A stretch of 64,000 nt of DNA, from assembly GCF_040546595.1 (NCBI RefSeq), contig NZ_JBEPOB010000001.1, forward strand, positions 4,279,001 through 4,343,000. The letters run 5' to 3'. This DNA comes from Bosea sp. OAE506. Lineage in GTDB: Bacteria > Pseudomonadota > Alphaproteobacteria > Rhizobiales > Beijerinckiaceae. Made by a program: the position numbers and the translations under genes. The notes under the pieces were generated by a model that worked only from the letters and a program-made list of their open reading frames with translations, did no database searches and was not told the DNA's origin. The first letter of the stretch is position 1, and each line of letters begins with the position of its first letter. Of this stretch, positions 48,909-59,190 are shown one piece after another.

Positions 48909-49663
48909 CCTCCGCCGCCGCGGCCCGCGCGCCGCGGTCGCGCGCGGTCCTGGTCCTCGTCGCGCTGCTCGCGCTCGCGGGGATTGCCGGTTTCACGCGG
49001 CTCGGTGTCTGGCAGGTCGAGCGGCTGTTCTGGAAGCGGGCGCTGATCGAGCGGGTCGAGGCCCGCATCCACGCCGATCCCGTCGCGGCGCCCGGGCCCT
49101 CGGCGTGGCCCGCCATCGCGGAGGCCGAATACACCCGCGTCGTCGTCAAAGGTCGCTTCCTGCATGACCGCGAGGTCCTCGTGCAGGCGGTGACGGAGCG
49201 CGGTGCGGGCTCCTGGGTGCTGACGCCGCTGGTCACCGGTTCCGGCTTCACGGTCCTGGTCAATCGCGGCTTCGTGCCGCCGGAACGGCGCGAGCGCGCC
49301 AGCCGTGCACAGGCGCTGCCGGAGGGCACTGTCACCGTCACCGGCCTGTTGCGGCTCAGCGAGCCCGGCGGCGGGTTCCTGCGGGCGAATGCGCCGGCCG
49401 AGGATCGCTGGCATTCCCGCGACGTCGCGGCGATCGCCGCCGCGCGCCAGCTGACTCAGGCCGCGCCCTATTTCGTCGATGCCGATGCCACCCCCAATGC
49501 CGGCGGCTTTCCGGTGGGCGGGCTGACGGTGGTCCGCTTCTCGGACAACCATCTCGTCTATGCGGCCACCTGGTTTGCTCTCGCGGCCATGCTCGCGGCC
49601 GCTCTGGTCTTCGTGCTACGCCACGAATTCCGGCTGCGGCGGGCGCGGGAGCAGGCCCATTAG
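48905..49663 (+). CDS. SURF1 family oxidase assembly protein
   Basis: A 252-residue assembly factor with one helix near each end (about 14-32 and 220-240) and a periplasmic domain between, as in SURF1, which helps insert haem into subunit I of haem-copper oxidases. Conserved points are FTRLGVWQVERLFWKRALIE, GSWVLTPLV with VLVNRGFVPPE, and FSDNHLVYAATWFALA. The GTG start overlaps the cyoD stop (GTGA). Its place in the quinol oxidase operon suggests a dedicated SURF1. Confidence 0.93.
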   Translation: MTSAAAARAPRSRAVLVLVALLALAGIAGFTRLGVWQVERLFWKRALIERVEARIHADPVAAPGPSAWPAIAEAEYTRVVVKGRFLHDREVLVQAVTERGAGSWVLTPLVTGSGFTVLVNRGFVPPERRERASRAQALPEGTVTVTGLLRLSEPGGGFLRANAPAEDRWHSRDVAAIAAARQLTQAAPYFVDADATPNAGGFPVGGLTVVRFSDNHLVYAATWFALAAMLAAALVFVLRHEFRLRRAREQAH

Positions 49664-50951
49664 GTTCCAGGACACCACCAACCAGAAAAACCTGCTGCTT
49701 CTGGTGCAGCTGCGCTGGCTCGCCGTCGGCGGTCAGGTGGTGACGATCCTCTTCGTCGACCGCATCCTCGGCATCGCCCTGCCGCTCGGCGACATGATGC
49801 TGGTTCTCCTGCTGCTGGTGGTGCTCAATCTGGCGAGCCTGCTGCGCCACCACCGCGTCGCCGCCGATGTCCGCAATGGCGAGCTCTTCGCCGCCCTGCT
49901 GTTCGATCTCGGCGCGCTGACGACGCAGCTCTATCTCAGCGGCGGCGCGAGCAACCCATTCATCTTTCTGTATCTGCTGCAGATCGGCCTTGCGGCCGTG
50001 CTGCTGGAATGGTGGTCGACCTGGGTCCTGGTCGGGCTGGCGGGGCTGTGCTTCGTCCTGCTGATGGGCGCGCATGAGCCGCTGGCCCTGCCCGTCGCGT
50101 TCGATGACGGCGTGCCGCGCCTCTATCTCCAGGGCGTCTTCGTCTGCTTCCTGATCGCGGCCGGGCTGCTCGTCCTGTTCCTGCAGCGGATCAGCCGGAA
50201 TTTGCGCATCCGCGACGAAAAGCTCGCCGATCTGCGCCAGCGCGCCGTGGAAGAGGACCATATCGTCCGCATGGGCCTGCTCGCCTCTGGCGCGGCGCAT
50301 GAACTCGGCACCCCGCTCTCGACCCTGTCCGTCATTCTCAACGACTGGCGCCGGATGCCGGTGCTCAAGGCCGAACCAGAGCTGATCGCCGAGATCGGCG
50401 AGATGCAGGCCCAGCTCGACCGCTGCAAGACCATCGTCTCCGGCATCCTGATGTCCTCGGGCGAGACACGGGCGGAAAATCCGGGCTGGACCACCGTGCG
50501 CGGCTTCGTCGATGAGCTGATCGAACAATGGCGCTCGCACCGGGCGCCGATGCGGCTCGATTATGTCAACGCCTTCACCCCCGATGCGGAGATCGTCTCC
50601 GACCCCGCTCTCAAGCAGGTGCTTGGCAATCTGCTCGACAACGCACAGGAGGCCTCGCCCCAGGCGATGACGGTGCAGGTCGAGCGGCGCGGCGAAGACC
50701 TCGCCATCGTCGTGGCCGACGAAGGGCCCGGCTTCACGGCCGAGATTCTCGCCGGACTCGGCAAGCCCTACCGCTCGACCAAGGGGCGGCCCGGCGGCGG
50801 GCTCGGGCTGTTCCTGGTCAGCAACGTCATGCGCAAGTTCGGCGGCACGCTGGAGGCCCGCAACCGCGAAACGGGGGGCGCCTGCGTCACCGTGACATTG
50901 CCCCTGATGGCGCTCTCGCCCGTAGTGGTCTCCCAGGAGGATGCCCGATGA
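49659..50951 (+). CDS. regB: RegB/PrrB/ActS-type redox-sensing histidine kinase
   Basis: A six-helix membrane kinase. The quinone-interaction motif GGASNPF, the H-box ASGAAHELGTPLSTL, the redox-active cysteine position in LDRCKTIV and the ATP-binding boxes NLLDNAQEAS, VADEGPGF and GGGLGLFLV are all present, so it senses quinone pool or redox state. No ATG, GTG or TTG lies where the N-terminus is expected. Similarity begins at about QLRWLAVGGQ, the next upstream ATG (49560) gives 33 residues of SURF1-shadow sequence, and an ATT overlapping the SURF1 stop (ATTAG), with GGGAG eight bases before it, is the position I propose; a GTG at 49704 would be too late. Length about 430. Confidence 0.88.
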   Translation: MRFQDTTNQKNLLLLVQLRWLAVGGQVVTILFVDRILGIALPLGDMMLVLLLLVVLNLASLLRHHRVAADVRNGELFAALLFDLGALTTQLYLSGGASNPFIFLYLLQIGLAAVLLEWWSTWVLVGLAGLCFVLLMGAHEPLALPVAFDDGVPRLYLQGVFVCFLIAAGLLVLFLQRISRNLRIRDEKLADLRQRAVEEDHIVRMGLLASGAAHELGTPLSTLSVILNDWRRMPVLKAEPELIAEIGEMQAQLDRCKTIVSGILMSSGETRAENPGWTTVRGFVDELIEQWRSHRAPMRLDYVNAFTPDAEIVSDPALKQVLGNLLDNAQEASPQAMTVQVERRGEDLAIVVADEGPGFTAEILAGLGKPYRSTKGRPGGGLGLFLVSNVMRKFGGTLEARNRETGGACVTVTLPLMALSPVVVSQEDAR

Positions 50952-51481
50952 GCGACGAGAAGACGCTCCTGATCGTGGAAGACGATTCCGCCTTCGCACC
51001 GGTGCTGCGCCGCTCCTTCGAGCGCCGCGGCTATGCCGTGGCTGTCTGCGACGGCATCGAGAGCCTGCGGACCCTGCTCGAGACGGTGACGCCGGGCTAT
51101 GCCGTGGTCGATCTCAAGGTGGTCGGCGGGTCGGGACTGGAATGCGTCCGCCTGCTGCACGAGCGCGACGCGGAAATGAAGATCGTCGTGCTGACGGGCT
51201 TTGCCAGCATCGCCACCGCGGTCGAGGCGATCAAGCTCGGCGCCTGCCACTACCTCGCCAAGCCGGCCAACACCGACGATATCGAGGCGGCGTTCGAGCG
51301 CGTGCAGGGCGATGCCGAGGTGCCGCTGACCCAGCGCCAGACCTCGCTCAAGAACCTGGAATGGGAGCGCATTCACGAAACCCTGGTGGAGAGCGATTTC
51401 AACATCTCCGAGACGGCGCGGCGGCTCGGCATGCATCGCCGCACGCTCGCCCGGAAGCTCGAGAAGCGCCGCCTCACCTGA
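50948..51481 (+). CDS. regA: RegA/PrrA/ActR-type response regulator
   Basis: A 177-residue regulator: receiver domain with the acidic pair LIVEDDSAF, phosphorylated Asp in AVVDLKVVGGSGLE, switch Thr in VVLTGFAS and Lys in YLAKPAN, then a short Fis-type helix-turn-helix (NISETARRLGMHRRTLARKL). This is the RegA family, which controls respiration, photosynthesis or carbon metabolism genes in alphaproteobacteria. Its ATG overlaps the kinase stop. Direct feedback on the operon's own quinol oxidase is a natural inference. Confidence 0.95.
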   Translation: MSDEKTLLIVEDDSAFAPVLRRSFERRGYAVAVCDGIESLRTLLETVTPGYAVVDLKVVGGSGLECVRLLHERDAEMKIVVLTGFASIATAVEAIKLGACHYLAKPANTDDIEAAFERVQGDAEVPLTQRQTSLKNLEWERIHETLVESDFNISETARRLGMHRRTLARKLEKRRLT

Positions 51482-51611: not shown

Positions 51612-52274
51612 ATGAGCGACATCATCGATACGGCCAGCAGCGCAGCGGCGTCCACGACGCTGGAACGCTTCTCGAGCCTGCATGACTGGCGCCGCCAAGT
51701 GGCCGATCTCTACGCCGCCATCCGCGCCCTGCCTGGCGAAGAGGGCTGGCTGCACTGGCGCAGCGTGCGCGACCGGCTGTTCCGCGAGCACCCGCAATCG
51801 CCGCTTTCGGCGGCACGCCGGGCGCAGTTCCGCGGTATCGACTGTTTCGCCTATGACCCCGCATTGCGCTTCACTGTCGCCACGGTGCCGGCGCATGACC
51901 GCGAGGTGATCCGCGTCGAGGCCGGCAAGGACGGCATGATGACACTGCTGCCCTTCGCGATGACGGACGGGCTTTTGGAGCCGCTGGGCAGGGAACTGAC
52001 GCTGTACTGGATCGAGAGCTATGGCGGCGGCGTTTTCCTGCCCTTCGGCGACGCCAGCAACGGACGCGAGAGCTTTGCCGGCGGACGCTACCTGCTCGAC
52101 ACGATCAAGAGCGCTGATCTCGGCAGCGACGGTGCGGGCCGGCTGATCCTCGACTTCAACTTCGCCTATTACCCCTCCTGCGCCTATTCGGAAGCCTGGG
52201 TCTGCCCGCTCTCGCCGGCCGAGAACCGGCTGCCTGTCGCGATCCGTGGCGGGGAACGAAACGCCGCCGACTGA
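51612..52274 (+). CDS. DUF1684 domain-containing protein
   Basis: A 220-residue cytosolic protein. The conserved C-terminal signature DFNFAYYPSCAYSEAWVCPL then SPAENRLPVAIRGGER is typical of DUF1684, as are ALPGEEGWLHWRSVRDRLFREHPQSPL and GGRYLLDTIKSADLG. Function unknown in the family. It stands alone between the regA gene and the ABC uptake operon. Confidence 0.9.
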   Translation: MSDIIDTASSAAASTTLERFSSLHDWRRQVADLYAAIRALPGEEGWLHWRSVRDRLFREHPQSPLSAARRAQFRGIDCFAYDPALRFTVATVPAHDREVIRVEAGKDGMMTLLPFAMTDGLLEPLGRELTLYWIESYGGGVFLPFGDASNGRESFAGGRYLLDTIKSADLGSDGAGRLILDFNFAYYPSCAYSEAWVCPLSPAENRLPVAIRGGERNAAD

Positions 52275-52404: not shown

Positions 52405-53289
52405 ATGCGCCTTCTCAAAACGCTTCTCGGGGCCGCGGCCCTGCTGGCGACCGGCCTCTCGGTGGCCTCGGCCCAGACGGTCAAGATCGGCTCCAAAAAC
52501 TTCACCGAGCAGTTCATCGTCGCGGAGCTCTATGGCGCCGCACTGGAAGCTGCCGGCTTCAAGGTCGAGCGCAAGATCAATCTCGGCGGGACGCTGGTGG
52601 CGCATGAGGCGCTCAAGAGCGGCGCAATCGATCTCTATCCCGAATACACCGGCACGGGGCTGAACGCCGTGATGAAGGCGCAAGGGGTGACCGAGACCGA
52701 CCCCGAGAAGGTGCGCGGCATGGTCAAGGCCTTCTACGAGAAGGAGTTCAACCTGACCTGGCTGAAGCCGTCGAACATCAACAACGGCTATGCGATCGTG
52801 GTCCGGCCGGAGACGGCCAAGGAGTTCAACCTCAAGACGCTCAGCGATCTCGGCAAGGCATCGTCGAAACTGCGGCTCGGCGCCGGCACGGAATTCGTCG
52901 ATCGCCGCGACGGCATCGCCGGCCTCAAGGAGGTCTATGGCGCGCAATTCGCCGAGTTCAAGCAGTTCGCGGCCCTGCGCCTGCGCTACGAGGCGCTGAA
53001 CCAGAAGCAGATCGAGGTCGCCAACGGCTTCTCGACCGACTGGCAGATCGCGGCCGACAAGTTCGTCGCGCTCGAGGACGACAAGGCCCTGTTCCCGCCC
53101 TATTTCCTCGCGCCCGTCGTGCGCCCCGAGATCGCCGCCAACGAGAAGATCGTCGGCATCCTCGAGAAGGTCGGCGCTGCCCTCGACAACCCGACGATGC
53201 AGGAGCTCAACCGCCAGGTCGAGGTCGACAAGAAGGAGCCGCGGACCGTCGCGGCGGCCTTCCTCAAGGCCAAGGGACTGGTGAACTGA
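52405..53289 (+). CDS. OsmU/ProU-type (OpuBC) substrate-binding protein
   Basis: A 294-residue periplasmic binding protein with a signal peptide ending at SVASAQ. The family start VKIGSKNFTEQFIVAELYG and the segment NLGGTLVAHEALKSGAIDLYPEYTGTG are unmistakable OpuBC-type sequence, a group binding quaternary amines such as glycine betaine, choline, carnitine and ergothioneine (EgtU). The ligand cannot be named from sequence. It heads an operon in which a lyase-fold gene comes next, six bases after its stop. Confidence 0.92.
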   Translation: MRLLKTLLGAAALLATGLSVASAQTVKIGSKNFTEQFIVAELYGAALEAAGFKVERKINLGGTLVAHEALKSGAIDLYPEYTGTGLNAVMKAQGVTETDPEKVRGMVKAFYEKEFNLTWLKPSNINNGYAIVVRPETAKEFNLKTLSDLGKASSKLRLGAGTEFVDRRDGIAGLKEVYGAQFAEFKQFAALRLRYEALNQKQIEVANGFSTDWQIAADKFVALEDDKALFPPYFLAPVVRPEIAANEKIVGILEKVGAALDNPTMQELNRQVEVDKKEPRTVAAAFLKAKGLVN

Positions 53290-53294
53290 GCGCT

Positions 53295-54848
53295 TTGCCT
53301 GCGGCCGGCACCGACGAGCCGCCTGCCGCCATCATCCTCGGCGGCGAACCGGTCAAGTCGGCGGCGATCCTTGCCATCGCGCAGGACGGCGCTTTGGTGC
53401 GGCTGCATCCGGGCCTGCTTTCGCGGCTGGAGGCGGCGCGGGCCGTCGTGCTGCGGGCACTCGACCGAGGCGACAGCGTCTACGGCCTGACGACCGGGCT
53501 GGGAGCGGCGGTCGATACCCGCCTCCACGCAGACGCGATCCCAGCCTTTCAGGCCCGTGCGATCCGCGCGCGAGCCGTTGGCGTCGGCGAACCGCTCTCG
53601 ACGGTCGAGGTGCGGGCTCTACTAGCGGCGCGGCTTGTCGCGATCTGCAATGGCGCATCCGGCATCTCCCCTGTTCTGGCGCAGACGATCGCGGCCATGC
53701 TCAATGCGGGCGTTCACCCCGTGGTGCGTCGGACCGGCTCGCTCGGCGAAGCCGATCTCAGCCCACTGGCGCAGGCGTTCCTGCCGCTGATCGGCGAGGG
53801 CGAGGCCGAGTTCCGGGGCGCCATTCTGCCCGGTGGCGAGGCGATGTCGGCGGCGGGTATCGCGCTGCCCTTGCTCGGCCCCAAGGACGGGCTGGCTCTT
53901 CTGAATGCCAATGCGCAGAGCGTGGGAATGGCCGCGCTGGCGGCCGAGGCGATGGTCAAGGCGCTCGACGCCGTCATCGTCGCAGGGGCGCTGTCGCTGG
54001 AAGCGTTCCGGGCCAATCTCTCGCCGCTCGATCCCGACCTCGCGGTTCTTAGGGGGATGGCCGGCCACGCCGCCGGTGTCGACCGCCTGCGCCGACTGCT
54101 CGCCGGCAGCGATCTCTGGGCGCCCGGCGCAGCACGGCGGCTGCAGGACCCGATCTCGTTTCGCACCCTTGCGCCGGTCGCGGGCCACGCCTTGCGGGCC
54201 GTCGCCGCCGCCCGTCAAACGGTCGACGCCGAACTCGCGAGCGCGCCGGACAGCCCGGCCGTACTGGTCGAGCGCGATATCCTGCTCTCCAGCGTCAATT
54301 TCGACACGACCGAGCTCGCCCTGACCTTTGAAGCCGCCGGTCTTGCGCTTTCCCATCTGGCGGCGACCTCCGCCGCGCGCATCGTCAAGCTGATGAATGC
54401 CGGCATGAGCGATCTGCCGCGCTTCCTGACGCGCCATGGCGGCTCGCATTCAGGCTTCGCGACGACGCAGAAGATCGCCGCGGCGCTGGAGGCCGAAATC
54501 CGCCATCTCGCCCTGCCGCTGGGCGCCATGACGCTGCCCGTCGCCGACGGCGTCGAAGATTACGCGCCGATGACGCCCGCCATTGTCGAGAAGACGCATG
54601 CCATCGCGAGGCGCCTGACTCGGCTGGCGGCGGTCGAGCTTGTGGTGGCCGCGGAGGCCGTCGATCTGCGCGGCGACATCAGGCTCGGCCGTGGAACCGC
54701 CGTTGCACATAATTTCGTGCGCGCTCATGTCGCCCGCCTCGACGACGACCGGCCGATGGGGCGGGAGTACGAGGCGCTGGCGCTCGCGATCGAGGCCGGC
54801 GGGCTGATGCTGGCCGATGTGGCTGGGCCAGTCGGGATCGCGCCATGA
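53295..54848 (+). CDS. HAL/PAL-fold lyase lacking the MIO-forming Ala-Ser-Gly
   Basis: A 517-residue member of the aromatic amino acid lyase superfamily. Alignable HAL landmarks: VYGLTTGLG with the base Tyr63, TGSLGEADLSPLAQ at 148-160, LALLNANAQ near 205, LQDPISFR with Arg290, SSVNFDTTELAL, HGGSHSGFATTQKIAAALEAE and VEDYAPM with Glu421. At 151-153, where HAL has the Ala-Ser-Gly that cyclises to MIO, it reads Gly-Glu-Ala. HAL's imidazole-binding histidine (SHAAG) is an arginine (RARAVG). So it is probably not a histidine ammonia-lyase. The TTG start has GGTGA upstream; the stop overlaps the permease ATG. An elimination on an imported betaine is inferred. Confidence 0.85.
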   Translation: MPAAGTDEPPAAIILGGEPVKSAAILAIAQDGALVRLHPGLLSRLEAARAVVLRALDRGDSVYGLTTGLGAAVDTRLHADAIPAFQARAIRARAVGVGEPLSTVEVRALLAARLVAICNGASGISPVLAQTIAAMLNAGVHPVVRRTGSLGEADLSPLAQAFLPLIGEGEAEFRGAILPGGEAMSAAGIALPLLGPKDGLALLNANAQSVGMAALAAEAMVKALDAVIVAGALSLEAFRANLSPLDPDLAVLRGMAGHAAGVDRLRRLLAGSDLWAPGAARRLQDPISFRTLAPVAGHALRAVAAARQTVDAELASAPDSPAVLVERDILLSSVNFDTTELALTFEAAGLALSHLAATSAARIVKLMNAGMSDLPRFLTRHGGSHSGFATTQKIAAALEAEIRHLALPLGAMTLPVADGVEDYAPMTPAIVEKTHAIARRLTRLAAVELVVAAEAVDLRGDIRLGRGTAVAHNFVRAHVARLDDDRPMGREYEALALAIEAGGLMLADVAGPVGIAP

Positions 54849-55474
54849 GCTGGACGATCGAAAACTGGGACCGGCTGCTGATCGCGCTTTGGGAGCATAT
54901 CCAGCTCGTCGGCGTCGGGCTGGCGATTGCGCTCGCCATCGGCCTGCCGCTCGGCGTGCTCTCGGCCCGGCGGCCCGGTTTCGCGCTCGTCGTGCTGCTG
55001 GTCTCGGGCGCGCTCTACACCGTGCCGGCGCTGGCGATCTTCGCACTGCTGATCCCCTATCTCGGCTTAGGCTTCTGGCCGGCGATCGTCGCGCTCGTCG
55101 CCTATGCGCTCCTGATCATCATCCGCAATGTCGCGACCGGGCTGCAGGAGATCGCGCCCGACATCCTCGATGCTGCCGACGGCATGGGCTATGGCCGCTG
55201 GCGCCGGCTCTTCGCCATCGAGCTGCCATTGGCGCTCCCCGTCATCATCGCCGGCATCCGCATCACTGTGGTGACGCAGGTCTCGGTCGCCACCGTCGCC
55301 GCCTTCATCAATGCGGGCGGGCTCGGCGACATCATCTTCCAGGGCATTACCCAGGATTTCGGCGAGAAGGTCGTCGCCGGCGCGGTCGTGACCTCGGCGC
55401 TGGCGATCCTCTGCGACGAGAGCCTGCGCCGGGTCGAGCTGCGGCTGCGCGCCAACCAGGCGGAGACCGTTTGA
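54845..55474 (+). CDS. OsmU/ProU-type ABC permease (first)
   Basis: A 209-residue inner-membrane permease with five to six helices. The EAA-loop equivalent reads ADGMGYGRWRRLFAIELPLALPVIIAGIRI, the ProW-type coupling helix, and the early segment LYTVPALAIFALLIPYLGLG is typical of OpuBB/YehW proteins. Its ATG overlaps the lyase stop (ATGA) and its stop touches the next ATG (TGATG). Confidence 0.93.
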   Translation: MSWTIENWDRLLIALWEHIQLVGVGLAIALAIGLPLGVLSARRPGFALVVLLVSGALYTVPALAIFALLIPYLGLGFWPAIVALVAYALLIIIRNVATGLQEIAPDILDAADGMGYGRWRRLFAIELPLALPVIIAGIRITVVTQVSVATVAAFINAGGLGDIIFQGITQDFGEKVVAGAVVTSALAILCDESLRRVELRLRANQAETV

Positions 55475-56109
55475 TGGCCACCTGGATTTCCGCCAACCCC
55501 CAGATCTTCATCGTCGCGCTGCAGAACCATCTCTGGCTGACCGGGGTCGCGCTGGCCGCCGTGCTGCTGATCGCGCTGCCGCTCGGGCTGCTACTGACGC
55601 GCCATCGCGGTTTCGCCAACGCCGCCATCGCGATCGTCAACATTCTGCGGACCGTGCCCTCGCTCGCGCTGCTGGTGATCATGCTACCGCTGCTGGGCAC
55701 TGGCTTCCTGCCCTCGGTGGTGGCGCTGACGCTCTACGGGCTGCCTGCGCTGCTGCTGAATACCTATACCGGCCTGACCGAGGTCGACGCCGACATTGTG
55801 GACGCCGCGCGCGGTCAGGGCTTCTCGGACGCGCAGGTGATGACGCGCATCGAGATCCCGCTCGCCTTGCCTGTGATCTTCGCAGGCATTCGCACGGCGG
55901 CGGTGCAGATCGTCTCGGCGGCGACGCTGGCCGCCTTCATCGGCGGCGGGGGGCTTGGCGAACTGATCACCGCCGGCATGGCCAATTTCAACTTCCCGCA
56001 GCTCATCGCCGGCGCCGTCGCGGTTGCGGCTCTGGCACTGGCTGTCGAGATCGGATTTGCGGGGATCGAACGCCTGATGACACGCCAGTTGCGGATGGGA
56101 GCCTCATGA
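55474..56109 (+). CDS. OsmU/ProU-type ABC permease (second)
   Basis: A 211-residue paralogue of the preceding permease: NILRTVPSLALLVIMLPLLGTG, ARGQGFSDAQVMTRIEIPLALPVIFAGIRTA (coupling helix) and AAFIGGGGLGELITAGM. Two permeases of this size form the heterodimeric channel of OsmU/YehWY-type importers. Its stop overlaps the ATPase ATG. Confidence 0.93.
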   Translation: MATWISANPQIFIVALQNHLWLTGVALAAVLLIALPLGLLLTRHRGFANAAIAIVNILRTVPSLALLVIMLPLLGTGFLPSVVALTLYGLPALLLNTYTGLTEVDADIVDAARGQGFSDAQVMTRIEIPLALPVIFAGIRTAAVQIVSAATLAAFIGGGGLGELITAGMANFNFPQLIAGAVAVAALALAVEIGFAGIERLMTRQLRMGAS

Positions 56110-57059
56110 CGATCCGGCTGGAGAAGGTCACCAAGCTGTTTCCCGGCGTTGCCAAGCCGGCGGTGGACGCGCTCGACCTGACGATCGAGACCGGACAGGT
56201 CTGCGTGCTGATCGGCCCCTCGGGCTGCGGCAAGACCACGACGATGCGGATGGTCAACCGTCTGATCGAGCCGAGTTCGGGGCAGATTTTCGTCGGCGAC
56301 CGCGACGTCACCAAGGCCGATCCGGTCGAGCTGCGCCGTCATATCGGCTACGTTATCCAGCAGATCGGCCTGTTCCCGCATATGACGATTGCGCAGAACG
56401 TCGCGACCGTGCCGAAGCTTCTGGGCTGGGAGGCGCCCCGCATCAAGGCGCGCGTCGCGGAGATGCTAGACCTCGTCGGGCTCGATCCGTCCCAGTTCCT
56501 ATCGCGCTATCCGCGCCATCTCTCGGGCGGGCAGCGCCAGCGCGTCGGGGTGGCGCGCGCGCTCGCCGCCGATCCGCCGGTGATGCTGATGGACGAGCCT
56601 TTCGGCGCCGTCGACCCGATCGTACGCGGGCGGCTGCAGGAGGAGTTCCTGGCGATCCTGAAGCGGCTGAAGAAGACGGTGATCCTCGTCACCCACGACA
56701 TCGACGAGGCGATCCGCATGGGCGATGTCGTCGCGATCCTGAAAGATGGGCGGCTGGTGCAATACGACACGCCCGACCGGCTGCTGGCCGCGCCGGCGAA
56801 CGATTTCGTCGCGGATTTCGTCGGCGCCGACCGGGCCCTGCGCCGGCTCTCGCTGGTGCGCGCGACGGAAGCCGTCGAGCCCGGCGAGGCTGCGGGCGGC
56901 TTCGCGCTGCCGGGCACGCTCTCGCTGCGGGAGGTGCTGTCGGCGCTGCTGGCCGAAGGCCGCGACGCCGCGACGATCCGCAGCGAGGACGGCGCGGCGC
57001 TGGGACAGATCACGCTGGCGGGCATTCGCGCGCGGAGTGCGGGGACGGTACTGTTCTGA
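56106..57059 (+). CDS. OsmU/ProU-type ABC ATPase
   Basis: A 317-residue ATPase: Walker A GPSGCGKTT (about 36-44), Q-loop GYVIQQIGLFPHMT, signature LSGGQRQRVGVARAL, Walker B VMLMDEPFGAVDPI and switch histidine VTHDIDEA. The C-terminal extension (about 240-317) takes the place of the tandem CBS osmosensor of OpuA-type ATPases and is too short for it, suggesting control by substrate rather than by ionic strength. A palindromic repeat follows the operon. Confidence 0.94.
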   Translation: MTIRLEKVTKLFPGVAKPAVDALDLTIETGQVCVLIGPSGCGKTTTMRMVNRLIEPSSGQIFVGDRDVTKADPVELRRHIGYVIQQIGLFPHMTIAQNVATVPKLLGWEAPRIKARVAEMLDLVGLDPSQFLSRYPRHLSGGQRQRVGVARALAADPPVMLMDEPFGAVDPIVRGRLQEEFLAILKRLKKTVILVTHDIDEAIRMGDVVAILKDGRLVQYDTPDRLLAAPANDFVADFVGADRALRRLSLVRATEAVEPGEAAGGFALPGTLSLREVLSALLAEGRDAATIRSEDGAALGQITLAGIRARSAGTVLF

Positions 57060-57206: not shown

Positions 57207-58010
57207 TCAGCCCGGCTGGAGGTATCCCGCGCTATCCGCCGCATCCGCCTCTTCGACCAGCACGCGGTAGGCCTCCAGCTCGACGGCGGCGAAGCCTGAT
57301 AGTCGGAGCCGGGCGAGGATCGCGCGTCCCTCCTCGTCCCCATGAGCGGCCAGCAGCGCCGCCCGCAACCGCGCGATGACCGCCTCCCCGACACCGTTCG
57401 ACGCCACCAGCAGCGGCATTGGCCGCAGCGCCGTCGTTTCGACGATGCGCAAACGTGCGGCGGTGTGCGGCTCGGCCACCAGCAGCAGGTCGTAAAAGTA
57501 GGAATCGAGCGGGCCGATGTCGATTTCGTCGGCCAGCAGCGCGTCGATCACCCGCCGCGGCGTCAGCAAAGGCCCGATGCTCTTCGCATAGAGCGGACCC
57601 CTCGCCTGCCAGTGCGGCAGGAGGTGGGTCCGCAGCGCGTTGAAGCCCGATTGCGAGTGCGCGACCGTCCAGCCGAGGCGGCCGCCGAAGCTGTCCGAGA
57701 GCGTGGCGATGTCGCTCTCGGCCCGCACGACGAGATGGGTCGCATAGAGTGGGCGGCCATCACCCGAGGCTGGAACAGGTGCGGCGACGGGCTGCACGGG
57801 GAAGCCACCCCGCGCGAACGGGTAGCCGCAAATGAAGGCGAGCCCGAGATCGTCGCGCCGCCAGAGGTCTTCCAACGGGGCCGGCGCCGCATGCGGGATG
57901 ACCGCGAGCGGGACGCCGGCCATCTCCGCGATCCGGGCGAAGAGCGCCGTCCAGTTCGCCGCCGTCGCGGCATCGACGGCATACATGCGGGCGTTGGCAA
58001 TGAGCCTCAC
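57207..58010 (-). CDS. PhnD-like binding-protein-fold protein without signal peptide
   Basis: A 267-residue protein of the phosphate/phosphonate-binding (PhnD, PF12974-type) fold: ANARMYAVDA start, WRRDDLGLAFICGYPFA, LYATHLVVRAESDIATLSD, GRLGWTVAHSQSGFNALR and IGPLDSYFYDLLL. The start GTG overlaps the stop of the upstream ornithine-cyclodeaminase-family gene (GTGA) and the protein begins directly with fold sequence, so no export signal is present and it probably acts in the cytoplasm. No ABC partner is encoded with it. Role unknown. Confidence 0.85.
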   Translation of the reverse strand: MRLIANARMYAVDAATAANWTALFARIAEMAGVPLAVIPHAAPAPLEDLWRRDDLGLAFICGYPFARGGFPVQPVAAPVPASGDGRPLYATHLVVRAESDIATLSDSFGGRLGWTVAHSQSGFNALRTHLLPHWQARGPLYAKSIGPLLTPRRVIDALLADEIDIGPLDSYFYDLLLVAEPHTAARLRIVETTALRPMPLLVASNGVGEAVIARLRAALLAAHGDEEGRAILARLRLSGFAAVELEAYRVLVEEADAADSAGYLQPG

Positions 58011-59017
58011 GCGTAGCGCAGCCTCTGGCCGAGGCCCATGGTCTTGGCTTTCTCCAGCATGAAATGGCCGAGCGCGATGTCCGAGAGCGAAAGGCCACGA
58101 TGCCAGAACAGGATGGTCTCGTCGTCGCGCTCGCGGCCGGGTTTGAGGCCGGCGACGATCTGGCCCATCTCGGCATGGAGCGTTTGTTCCGAGAGCTTGC
58201 CGGCCTCGACATGGGCGCGCAGGCTGCCGAAGGGGCCGCCCTTGCACTGGCCCCAATCGTCGACGACGAGCTTGCTCATGATGTCGGTGAGCGACAATTC
58301 GACCGCGCTCATCGTGCCATAAGGCACGACGAAGGCGCCCGGCTTGATCCAGTCGGTCTTCAGCATCGGCTCCGGCGCGTTCAGCCGGGAAGCCTCGACC
58401 ACGATGTCGGCGCCCTCGACGCAGCTCTGCCAATCCTCCGTCACGACCACGCGCTTGCCGAGATCGGCCGAGAGGCGAGCCCCGAAGGCGTCGCGGCTCT
58501 CGGGCCGGCGGGAATGGACCCGAATCTCGTCGAAATCGAATAGGGAATCGAGCAGTCGGACGTTCCAGTAGGCCGTTCCGCGCGCGCCGATATGGCCCAG
58601 CACCTTCGAGCCCTTGCGGGCGAGATGTTTGGCGCCGATCGCGGTGATCGCGCCTGTGCGCATGTCGGTGAGATGGCTGCCGTCGACGATCGCGGTGGGG
58701 ACACCGGTCATCTGGTCCATCAGCAGGAGCAGGCCCATCTCTGAGGGCAGGCCCTGCTTGTAGTTGTCGACGAAGTCGCCGATCACCTTGACCCCGGCGC
58801 GGGCGATCGGCGCGCGGAAGGCGCCGCGCAGCACGTTGAAATGGCCGTTGGCGCCAGCCTTCGGCATCAGATGGACGCGCGGCTCGATCTCGGTCTGGCC
58901 GCGGCCCTGGGCGGCAAGACCTGCCTCGACCGCGGCAATGATTTCCGCATCGGTGAGCTTCAGCGCCTCGACGTCGAGCGCGTTGAGGAAGTCGATATAG
59001 AGCGGCGGATGGGACAC
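58007..59017 (-). CDS. Ornithine cyclodeaminase / mu-crystallin family protein
   Basis: A 336-residue NAD(P)-dependent enzyme family: cyclodeaminases, alanine dehydrogenases and ketimine reductases. Visible are EPRVHLMPKAGANGHFNVLRG, the catalytic region GVKVIGDFVDNYKQGLP, SHLTDMRTGAITAIGAKHLA and the Rossmann loop VLGHIGARGTAYWNVRLL. The GTG start has GAGG seven bases before it. It overlaps the PhnD-like gene in GTGA, so the two are a translationally coupled pair, convergent with the ABC/lyase operon. Substrate undetermined. Confidence 0.9.
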   Translation of the reverse strand: MSHPPLYIDFLNALDVEALKLTDAEIIAAVEAGLAAQGRGQTEIEPRVHLMPKAGANGHFNVLRGAFRAPIARAGVKVIGDFVDNYKQGLPSEMGLLLLMDQMTGVPTAIVDGSHLTDMRTGAITAIGAKHLARKGSKVLGHIGARGTAYWNVRLLDSLFDFDEIRVHSRRPESRDAFGARLSADLGKRVVVTEDWQSCVEGADIVVEASRLNAPEPMLKTDWIKPGAFVVPYGTMSAVELSLTDIMSKLVVDDWGQCKGGPFGSLRAHVEAGKLSEQTLHAEMGQIVAGLKPGRERDDETILFWHRGLSLSDIALGHFMLEKAKTMGLGQRLRYA

Positions 59018-59190
59018 GCGGCAACCTCGGCACGGGGTTCGGGAGCGGGCGAAGCCCGACAATACACGGCTGTGCGCCTCCGCCCCGGCCTTTCGCGACA
59101 GCGCCGCATGCGCTGCGCTATCAGGGTGCGCGGAACTGGCAAGGAACTTGCTGCGACCGGTCGGGGGAAGTCACTCGGTAGGGACATCCA

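What the first reader, a model, noticed from the sequence alone, without database searches (positions are those of the whole stretch)
52405..57059. Quaternary-amine-type importer operon carrying a HAL-fold lyase without the MIO triad
Five genes on one strand (binding protein, lyase, permease, permease, ATPase); the last four are joined by ATGA or TGATG junctions and the lyase starts six bases after the binding-protein stop. The lyase aligns with histidine ammonia-lyase throughout and keeps Tyr63, Arg290 and Glu421 positions, but the MIO-forming Ala-Ser-Gly is Gly-Glu-Ala (151-153) and HAL's substrate-imidazole histidine is an arginine. Known: OpuBC-type binding proteins include EgtU for ergothioneine, and ergothionase, which removes trimethylamine from ergothioneine, belongs to the HAL superfamily and, as far as I recall, does not use MIO. 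Inference: this operon imports an aromatic or imidazole betaine and removes its amine by a MIO-independent elimination. No thiourocanate-processing gene is in the window.
Basis: partly seen in the sequence, partly recalled or inferred. Interest (0 to 1): 0.88.

Follow-up and report, generated by a model that had tools for sequence, protein, structure and literature searches.

The report
MIO-free lyase in betaine-import operon
A soil bacterium of the Bosea type carries a gene cluster that appears to import a trimethylated amino acid (a betaine) and split off its amine with a relative of histidine ammonia-lyase that lacks the usual built-in cofactor; the enzyme belongs to a large, mostly unstudied group whose closest studied member is ergothionase, and its exact substrate is still unknown.

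Summary
The five genes, their junctions, and the lyase without an Ala-Ser-Gly (MIO) triad are all there; the triad region is one residue shorter than in HAL (GSLGEADL against GSVGASGDL). The best solved relative is the MIO-free ergothionase of Treponema denticola.

(1) HAL's ring-contacting His is Arg93. Arg is the commoner form in a deep MIO-less family, and the His-type enzymes of ergothioneine clusters are a nested subclade. (2) The binding protein keeps a quaternary-amine cage and carboxylate clamp but not EgtU's ergothioneine determinants. (3) The genome has no thiohydantoin desulfurase and no EgtD, but a complete hut set.

OCD neighbours 60 of 71 Arg-type lyases and 0 of 8 His-type ones. 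A HutC-type palindrome precedes the Arg-type operon in 25 of 84 loci, though not in the window. Two distant loci put the lyase beside hut genes.

Best reading: a MIO-independent amine lyase for an imported histidine-type betaine. OCD's role is unexplained.

The parts
51612..52274 (+). DUF1684 protein (PF07920), 220 aa; possible accessory gene
   Evidence: Pfam; next to the operon in 15 Bosea-clade loci (L007-L018, L024, L025, L079) and, 52% identical, directly after the Arg-type lyase of Rhizobium sp. CC-CFT758, L117
52405..53289 (+). OpuBC/ProX-type periplasmic binding protein for a quaternary-amine carboxylate
   Evidence: PF04069; cage Y81, Y129, F209, Y233 with N127; carboxylate clamp K31, T84, R167 (positions from passages of PMC9732360)
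53295..54848 (+). MIO-less HAL-superfamily lyase, Arg type, 517 aa (TTG start)
   Evidence: PF00221; below the HutH equivalog cut-off, 324 against 539 bits; best PDB match ergothionase 6s7j, E 2.4e-69
53571..53573 (+). codon of Arg93, at the position of HAL His83
   Evidence: alignments
53736..53759 (+). GSLGEADL, the shortened MIO-triad region (residues 148-155)
   Evidence: alignments
54845..55474 (+). ABC permease 1
   Evidence: PF00528
55474..56109 (+). ABC permease 2
   Evidence: PF00528
56106..57059 (+). ABC ATPase, ProV-like
   Evidence: PF00005; TIGR01186 proV 315.5 bits, just under its cut-off of 326.6
57207..58010 (-). PhnD-like protein without signal peptide, overlapping the OCD gene (start inferred at GTG 58010)
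   Evidence: PF12974; N-termini of the window protein and nine relatives read by eye, none looks like a signal peptide; found with OCD beside 52 of 71 Arg-type lyases
58007..59062 (-). ornithine cyclodeaminase/mu-crystallin-family enzyme, a narrow conserved subfamily (ORF as listed; the true start may be internal)
   Evidence: PF02423; alignment A4, 61-77% identity to eight relatives; beside 60 of 71 Arg-type lyases

Best explanation
The operon is a catabolic import-and-cleave module. The periplasmic protein binds a zwitterion with a quaternary ammonium group and a carboxylate, and the two permeases and the ATPase import it. The lyase binds the alpha-carboxylate as HAL does and, without MIO, eliminates the tertiary amine (trimethylamine if the cargo is a trimethyl betaine), giving an aryl-acrylate; a quaternary amine leaves without the activation that MIO gives to a primary amine. 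The cargo is most likely a histidine-type betaine, hercynine or a ring-modified relative (the first rival below is a special case of this), so that the product is urocanate or a substituted urocanate handled by the hut pathway or by lineage-specific genes. The convergent OCD-family enzyme and PhnD-like protein are probably part of the same pathway, in a step not identified. Shown here by sequence: no MIO triad; family placement; SBP pocket; OCD linkage; HutC and hut linkage in relatives. Inferred: the reaction, the substrate, and the role of OCD. Separate estimates: MIO-independent lyase 0.9; quaternary-amine substrate 0.7; histidine-type substrate 0.5; hercynine itself 0.3.
For: Best solved match is MIO-free ergothionase, with the same shortened triad and the loss of the Tyr280 region. 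HAL's carboxylate-site residues are kept (Arg290, Tyr63, Asn206; roles recalled). The SBP clamp and cage are kept in 57 of 59 rows, 49 of 51 distinct ones; the window's own locus is among these rows more than once, and the two exceptions are SBPs beside GSVGYL lyases. Arg-type lyases neighbour OCD in 60 of 71 rows, His-type in 0 of 8. In 25 of 84 loci (L003-L086) the exact palindrome TGTATATACA lies 32-154 bases before the first matched gene of the Arg-type lyase operon: 31 sites in all, 0.25 (mononucleotide) or 0.04 (first-order Markov) expected; most of these loci are Rhizobium, the others Martelella, Hoeflea, Ancylobacter, Salinicola and one titled Mycobacterium. In L071 the same palindrome lies between hutF and hutU. 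Six of six tested HutC proteins pass the TIGR02018 cut-off, including those beside the lyases of L003, L005 and L072. L071 (Salinicola): hutU, hutI, hutG, then the Arg-type lyase on one strand, with hutC upstream and hutF on the other strand. L161: BCCT transporter, a GSVGYL HAL-like gene, hutI, hutG, then Arg-type lyase, SBP, OCD, PhnD-like, permeases, ATPase on one strand. Own genome: complete hut set, one urocanase, no S-Me-THD, no EgtD. L063 joins ergothioneine-cluster genes with CoA-transferase, SDR and MaoC genes, so such genes do not exclude a histidine-type betaine.
Against: No activity or ligand data. The window operon itself has no HutC palindrome and no hut gene, so the histidine link rests on relatives, many of them Rhizobium strains and not independent. 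An OpuBC-type SBP lies near only 39 of 71 Arg-type lyases, and 25 of the 60 loci with OCD lack one, so the betaine inference from the SBP does not cover the whole family. Rhizobium and Ancylobacter operons carry CoA-transferase, MaoC and SDR genes, which suggests an acrylate degraded through CoA esters rather than by urocanase. If the GSVGYL-type lyases in L161, L029 and L031 already take hercynine, the Arg type must take something else. A canonical HAL also lies near the L071 cluster. OCD and the PhnD-like protein have no place in a plain hercynine-to-urocanate route, and OCD also occurs without any linked lyase.
Confidence: 0.5

Rival explanations
1. Special case of the best reading: the lyase is a trimethylamine-lyase for ergothioneine sulfonate or another hercynine with an anionic ring substituent, which Arg93 binds; later steps remove the ring substituent.
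For: Position 93 is HAL's ring-contacting position (recalled), and Arg there suits an anion. Rhizobium rhizogenes carries the Arg type (P0185; that its contig is chromosome II of strain K84, also called Agrobacterium radiobacter, is recalled from the length). A bacterial ergothioneine-sulfonate pathway paper is cited as reference 43 for A. radiobacter in PMC13405746 (passages read); that paper itself is not held. A sulfate-exporter-family gene precedes the operon in R. johnstonii and lies beside OCD in Paracoccus saliphilus.
Against: No desulfonating gene was recognised in the window cluster. Whether the published pathway uses this enzyme, and in which strain, was not verified. The R. rhizogenes genome of L031 also holds two lyases without ASG and with His at that position of the GSVGYL and GSAGYL kinds and one GSIGCADI lyase with His (L176, L185, L187), so the Arg type is not its only candidate; I lowered this rival from 0.20 to 0.17 for that. 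Arg93 is the commoner state in the family and could serve other ligands.
Confidence: 0.17
2. It is an ordinary ergothionase acting on ergothioneine.
For: Best solved match is ergothionase; same triad form with Glu (GEAD/GEGD). PMC13405746 lists A. radiobacter among holders of ergothionase (passages); if that strain is of the R. rhizogenes group, its Arg-type lyase is one candidate for that activity (raised from 0.12 to 0.14 for this).
Against: Nine His-type enzymes, among them those of the ergothioneine clusters L063 and L076, form a separate nested clade. In L063 and L076 the lyase is His-type with urocanase, S-Me-THD, amidohydrolase and M20 genes and no OCD. EgtU determinants are absent in the SBP. 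No S-Me-THD in the genome.
Confidence: 0.14
3. The substrate is a non-imidazole aromatic betaine (hypaphorine, tyrosine or phenylalanine betaine), or an aliphatic one; the acrylate is degraded through CoA esters or decarboxylated by UbiD.
For: CoA-transferase, MaoC and SDR next to many Arg-type lyases; UbiD next to an Arg-type lyase in L021; luciferase-like monooxygenases in L085, L086, L117, L118, L124.
Against: HutC proteins and palindromes, and hut genes beside the lyase in two distant lineages; no such genes next to the Bosea operon; the same CoA-transferase, SDR and MaoC kinds also occur in an ergothioneine cluster (L063).
Confidence: 0.12
4. It is a HAL that makes MIO or an equivalent from another tripeptide and deaminates histidine.
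For: Whole-length similarity to HAL.
Against: Triad shortened, Tyr280 region lost, score far below the HutH cut-off, and a canonical HAL in the same genome's hut operon.
Confidence: 0.03

Closest known systems
Ergothionase (ergothioneine trimethylamine-lyase), T. denticola, PDB 6s7j
   Same: HAL fold family, no MIO triad, identical shortened triad length with Glu, loss of the Tyr280 region, kept Glu421, Arg290 and Tyr63 positions
   Different: 31% identity; Arg93 instead of His; OCD and PhnD-like neighbours here; no S-Me-THD in this genome
His-type MIO-less lyases in ergothioneine clusters of Rhizobium setariae (L076) and Ancrocorticia (L063)
   Same: same family in the tree; L076 is 66% identical to an Arg-type Rhizobium enzyme, P0123
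   Different: His at position 93; clustered with urocanase, S-Me-THD, amidohydrolase and M20; no OCD
EgtU ergothioneine importer (PMC9732360, passages read)
   Same: subcluster F-III-type cage and carboxylate clamp; Glu at the E375 position
   Different: Asn32 for I243, Phe33 for G244, Tyr81 for F293, Phe209 for Y419; SBP and permeases are separate genes (EgtUBC is a fusion)
Archaeoglobus fulgidus ProX (glycine betaine), PDB 1sw2
   Same: Phe at the G244 position and Tyr at the F293 position, as reported for AfProX in PMC9732360
   Different: fourth cage position is Phe here; linked to a lyase
Sinorhizobium/Pseudomonas HutXWV with HutH (recalled, not tested)
   Same: quaternary-amine-type ABC importer beside a HAL-family gene
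   Different: different SBP subfamily as recalled; known as a histidine importer; an ABC importer with a divergent SBP beside L029 and L031 goes with a GSVGYL lyase

Membership tests
Ergothionase | HAL-superfamily enzyme without the Ala-Ser-Gly triad | tested here: met
Ergothionase | His at the HAL His83 position, as in 6s7j and in the ergothioneine-cluster enzymes L063 and L076 | tested here: not met
   Arg93
Ergothionase | linked or genome-encoded thiourocanate route (S-Me-THD desulfurase and a second urocanase) | tested here: not met
   no PF06032 in the genome; one urocanase only, in the hut operon
Ergothionase | trimethylamine release from ergothioneine | not testable with these tools
   needs assay
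Histidine ammonia-lyase (HutH) | MIO-forming Ala-Ser-Gly | tested here: not met
Histidine ammonia-lyase (HutH) | TIGR01225 curated cut-off | tested here: not met
   324.1 against 539.15 bits
Quaternary-amine SBP of the ProX/OpuBC/EgtU type | aromatic cage with Asn base and carboxylate clamp Lys/Thr/Arg | tested here: met
   with residues; spacings 50/48/38 against 51/48/38 computed from the EgtU numbers
EgtU | F293, G244 and I243 determinants | tested here: not met
   Tyr81, Phe33, Asn32
EgtU | E375 contacting the imidazole | tested here: met
   Glu163; Glu in 54 of 59 SBP rows; this Glu also occurs in the sensor precursor 6uru (alignment), so it is not specific
HutC regulon | HutC-type palindrome upstream of the operon | tested here: not met
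   absent in the window; present in 25 of 84 related loci

The most novel reading that the evidence does not exclude
The Arg-type MIO-less lyases with their OCD partner and a PhnD-like protein without signal peptide define an undescribed catabolic pathway for histidine betaines (hercynine or its oxidised or ring-substituted forms), common in rhizobia and other Alphaproteobacteria and in part under HutC control; the ergothionases of proteobacterial ergothioneine clusters evolved from it by an Arg-to-His change with loss of OCD.
Probability: 0.35. Interest if true: 0.72.

Novelty: new variant of a known kind. Interest (0 to 1): 0.58.

Why it matters
Databases often name these proteins histidine ammonia-lyase (names), yet they lack the triad that forms the cofactor of that activity. 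If they are amine lyases for imported betaines, a large group of soil and root-associated bacteria has an unnoticed route for breaking down histidine betaines and releasing trimethylamine, and the family offers a natural Arg/His switch for studying how MIO-free elimination chooses its ring. It also gives a concrete, testable puzzle: why an OCD-family enzyme accompanies the lyase across deep branches of the family.

Tried and rejected
Ergothionase orthology was considered first and lowered after the tree and genome tests. A sequencing error was rejected (many relatives share the triad). An opine or aminopolycarboxylate substrate (suggested by OCD, Opp-type transporters and luciferase-like monooxygenases) was set aside because the window's SBP keeps a quaternary-amine cage; it is not excluded for loci with Opp-type transporters or without an OpuBC SBP. 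Contexts of OCD without a linked lyase (L133-L158) gave no shared pathway. Of 36 OCD-positive genomes found, 33 were searched for lyases (left out: G000, G105, G229); at least 20 of 33 hold a lyase without ASG somewhere (17 with the shortened triad, 3 GSVGYI). In ten others the one match read has ASG and further matches were not read; in two (G650, G662) no match was read; one (G494) had none. No matched background rate was computed for this. The tree is a quick one (SH-aLRT only, midpoint drawing root); three of its 12 His rows (T. denticola ergothionase, L099, L029_1) lie outside the nested His clade, and the T. denticola enzyme is on a long branch of unsure place. Literature: nine searches listed nothing whose title or abstract start describes an OCD-linked or Arg-type MIO-less lyase; only passages of two papers were read; one search matched 27,575 papers of which 10 were listed, so it tests little; most subscription papers are not held.
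Full report
WHAT IS THERE. The window (a 5.0 Mb single-contig genome; Bosea-like by its best protein relatives) holds five tightly spaced genes at 52405-57059: an OpuBC/ProX-type binding protein, a HAL-superfamily lyase, two permeases and an ATPase. The lyase's best match among solved structures is the MIO-free ergothionase of Treponema denticola (E 2.4e-69, 237.8 bits), ahead of the best HAL (E 4e-54). It scores far below the HutH equivalog cut-off (324 against 539 bits). The region that forms MIO in HAL, GSVGASGDL, is GSLGEADL here: one residue shorter, no Ala-Ser-Gly. Ergothionase has SSIGEGDI, the same length. HAL's QDPYSLR is QDPISFR, as in ergothionase (QDPLSFR). Tyr63, Arg290, Asn206 and Glu421 are kept; His83 of HAL is Arg93 (HAL residue roles recalled).

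Convergent with the operon lie an ornithine cyclodeaminase/mu-crystallin-family gene (58007-59062, minus) and, overlapping it, a PhnD-like gene (57207-58010, minus) whose product shows no signal peptide by eye, nor do nine relatives. In Rhizobium johnstonii and Martelella the same genes lie in one run with the lyase and the importer. In Azospirillum, lyase, OCD and PhnD-like sit with an Opp-type transporter instead. A DUF1684 gene precedes the operon here and in 15 Bosea-clade loci; a 52% identical one follows the Arg-type lyase in Rhizobium sp. CC-CFT758.

FAMILY SURVEY. A scan of one genome per species gave 323 confirmed stretches, of which the best 80 were kept. Among 81 lyase rows from 79 of these loci (L018 had no called lyase), 71 have Arg at position 93 and 10 have His; two of the His rows are secondary GSVGYL genes in L029 and L031, whose loci also hold an Arg-type lyase. 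OCD lies within the fetched flank in 60 of 71 Arg rows and in 0 of the other 8 His rows. Of the 11 Arg rows without OCD, six are on stretches under 12 kb. An OpuBC-type SBP lies in the locus of 39 of the 71 Arg rows; 25 of the 60 loci with OCD have none, mostly Rhizobium and Azospirillum. So the lyase-OCD linkage is broader than the lyase-importer linkage. Many loci are Rhizobium and not independent, but the OCD linkage recurs in Bosea, Enterovirga, Azospirillum, Hoeflea, Inquilinus, Ancylobacter, Phyllobacterium and Sinorhizobium. In a tree of 71 rows the nine MIO-bearing HALs form one side of a branch (support 100). The 50 Arg-type rows make up several deep branches. Nine of the 12 His-type rows without ASG, among them the lyase of L076, form a subclade (99) inside the Arg type; the other three (T. 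denticola ergothionase, L099 and the GSVGYL gene L029_1) fall on the HAL side. L076 and L063 carry urocanase, S-Me-THD, amidohydrolase and M20 genes beside the lyase, which fits the known ergothioneine route as recalled. The simplest reading is that these ergothionases arose from an Arg-type ancestor. The placement of the T. denticola enzyme is unsure (long branch).

BINDING PROTEIN. Using residue numbers read in passages of PMC9732360, the SBP has K31, T84 and R167 at the EgtU carboxylate positions K242, T296 and R379, and Y81, Y129, Y233 and N127 at the cage positions F293, Y341, Y443 and N339, with spacings 50/48/38 against 51/48/38. These seven residues are kept in 57 of 59 aligned SBP rows, 49 of 51 distinct ones (the window's own locus is among them more than once); the two exceptions are the SBPs beside the GSVGYL lyases. 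The position of Y419 is Phe209 here and varies among the rows (F 31, A 22, Y 4, T 2 of 59). EgtU-specific positions differ (N32, F33, Y81), and Phe33 and Tyr81 match what that paper reports for the glycine-betaine protein AfProX. So the window's cargo very likely is a quaternary-amine carboxylate, and ergothioneine is not the favoured guess.

LINK TO HISTIDINE-TYPE CATABOLISM. Several Arg-type operons contain or adjoin a HutC-family repressor; six of six HutC proteins tested (three of them beside Arg-type lyases) pass the TIGR02018 cut-off of 220 bits (261-320 bits). The exact 10-mer TGTATATACA occurs 31 times in 25 of the 84 loci L003-L086, where 0.25 (mononucleotide) or 0.04 (first-order Markov) would be expected. 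In all 25 loci at least one site lies 32-154 bases before the first matched gene of the Arg-type lyase operon. Most of the 25 are Rhizobium; the rest are Martelella, Hoeflea, two Ancylobacter, Salinicola and a record titled Mycobacterium. In L071 the same core also lies between hutF and hutU, an internal control. None of the eight His-type loci has it. In L071 (Salinicola) the lyase follows hutU, hutI and hutG on one strand, with hutC upstream and hutF on the other strand; a canonical HAL lies just beyond the fetched stretch. OCD with PhnD-like also occurs in or beside operons with canonical HutH (L119, L120, L123, L160). That HutC answers to urocanate is recalled. The window operon itself has no such palindrome.

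OWN GENOME. It has one canonical HAL and one urocanase in a complete hut set (hutC, F, I, H, G, U), no S-Me-THD and no EgtD-type methyltransferase. Urocanate could therefore be used; thiourocanate by the known route probably not; the host does not seem to make hercynine itself.

MECHANISM. With a quaternary ammonium as leaving group no MIO is needed; the enzyme binds the carboxylate at Arg290 and its neighbours, takes a beta proton and expels the tertiary amine. This follows ergothionase by analogy; the step is inferred. The ring is likely read by Arg93 and Glu421. Hercynine fits the absence of recognised ring-processing genes in the Bosea cluster and the hut links. Ergothioneine sulfonate fits an anion-binding Arg and the presence of the Arg type in Rhizobium rhizogenes (P0185; identity of its contig with K84 recalled), since a sulfonate pathway paper is cited for Agrobacterium radiobacter in PMC13405746 (passages read). 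But the same passages list A. radiobacter as a holder of ergothionase, and the R. rhizogenes genome of L031 has further ASG-less lyases with His (GSVGYL, GSAGYL, GSIGCADI), so that clue is open. CoA-transferase, MaoC and SDR genes in Rhizobium, and UbiD in L021, suggest that some members make a different acrylate, although such genes also stand in the ergothioneine cluster of L063. OCD stays unexplained: it is a sharply bounded subfamily (27 of 385 class genomes and 11 of 398 phylum genomes at E under 1e-110, every match at 1.7e-156 or lower) that also occurs without linked lyases.

CHANGES ON CHECKING.

VERDICT. A MIO-independent amine lyase coupled to a betaine importer is well supported for this operon; a histidine-type betaine is the likeliest cargo; ergothioneine itself is unlikely. 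New variant of a known kind (ergothionase-like lyases), in a gene setting that nine literature searches did not turn up.

Noticed in passing
L161:15478-17112, L029 and L031 near 560-2000, L211, L212, L218, L226, L184, L185, L179: A second HAL-like type with GSVGYL, GSVGYI or GSAGYL in place of the MIO triad but His at position 83; in L161 it stands with a BCCT transporter and hut genes, in L029 and L031 with an ABC importer. Possibly another MIO-less betaine lyase.
   Followed up: partly
L186 and L187 (genomes of L029 and L031): A divergent HAL-like lyase with GSIGCADI and His at position 93, unlinked to the Arg-type cluster.
   Followed up: no
L074, L084 and L021: UbiD (with UbiX in L074 and L084) beside MIO-less lyases, suggesting decarboxylation of the acrylate product in some lineages.
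   Followed up: partly
L004:11986-23279 (Paracoccus aminophilus pAMI4): A His-type MIO-less lyase followed by an ABC substrate-binding protein, a GNAT gene and six luciferase-family oxidoreductases, with CoA-transferase, SDR and MaoC upstream.
   Followed up: no
L006:1662-2597 and L122:9344-10300: A fatty-acid-desaturase-family gene close to OCD in L122 (PF00487) and, by similarity, in L134, L135, L138 and L153; a similar-looking gene lies near OCD in L006.
   Followed up: partly
L119, L123 and L160: OCD, PhnD-like and a TctC-type protein inside or beside hut genes with canonical HutH; their role there is unknown.
   Followed up: partly
L056 (contig NZ_VCCH02000021.1): A record titled Mycobacterium sp. 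KBS0706 carries an operon close to the Rhizobium/Inquilinus type; the name may be wrong.
   Followed up: no
window 49560-51481: A sensor kinase and a response-regulator-like protein upstream of the cluster, by eye of the RegB/RegA kind; not tested, apparently unrelated.
   Followed up: no
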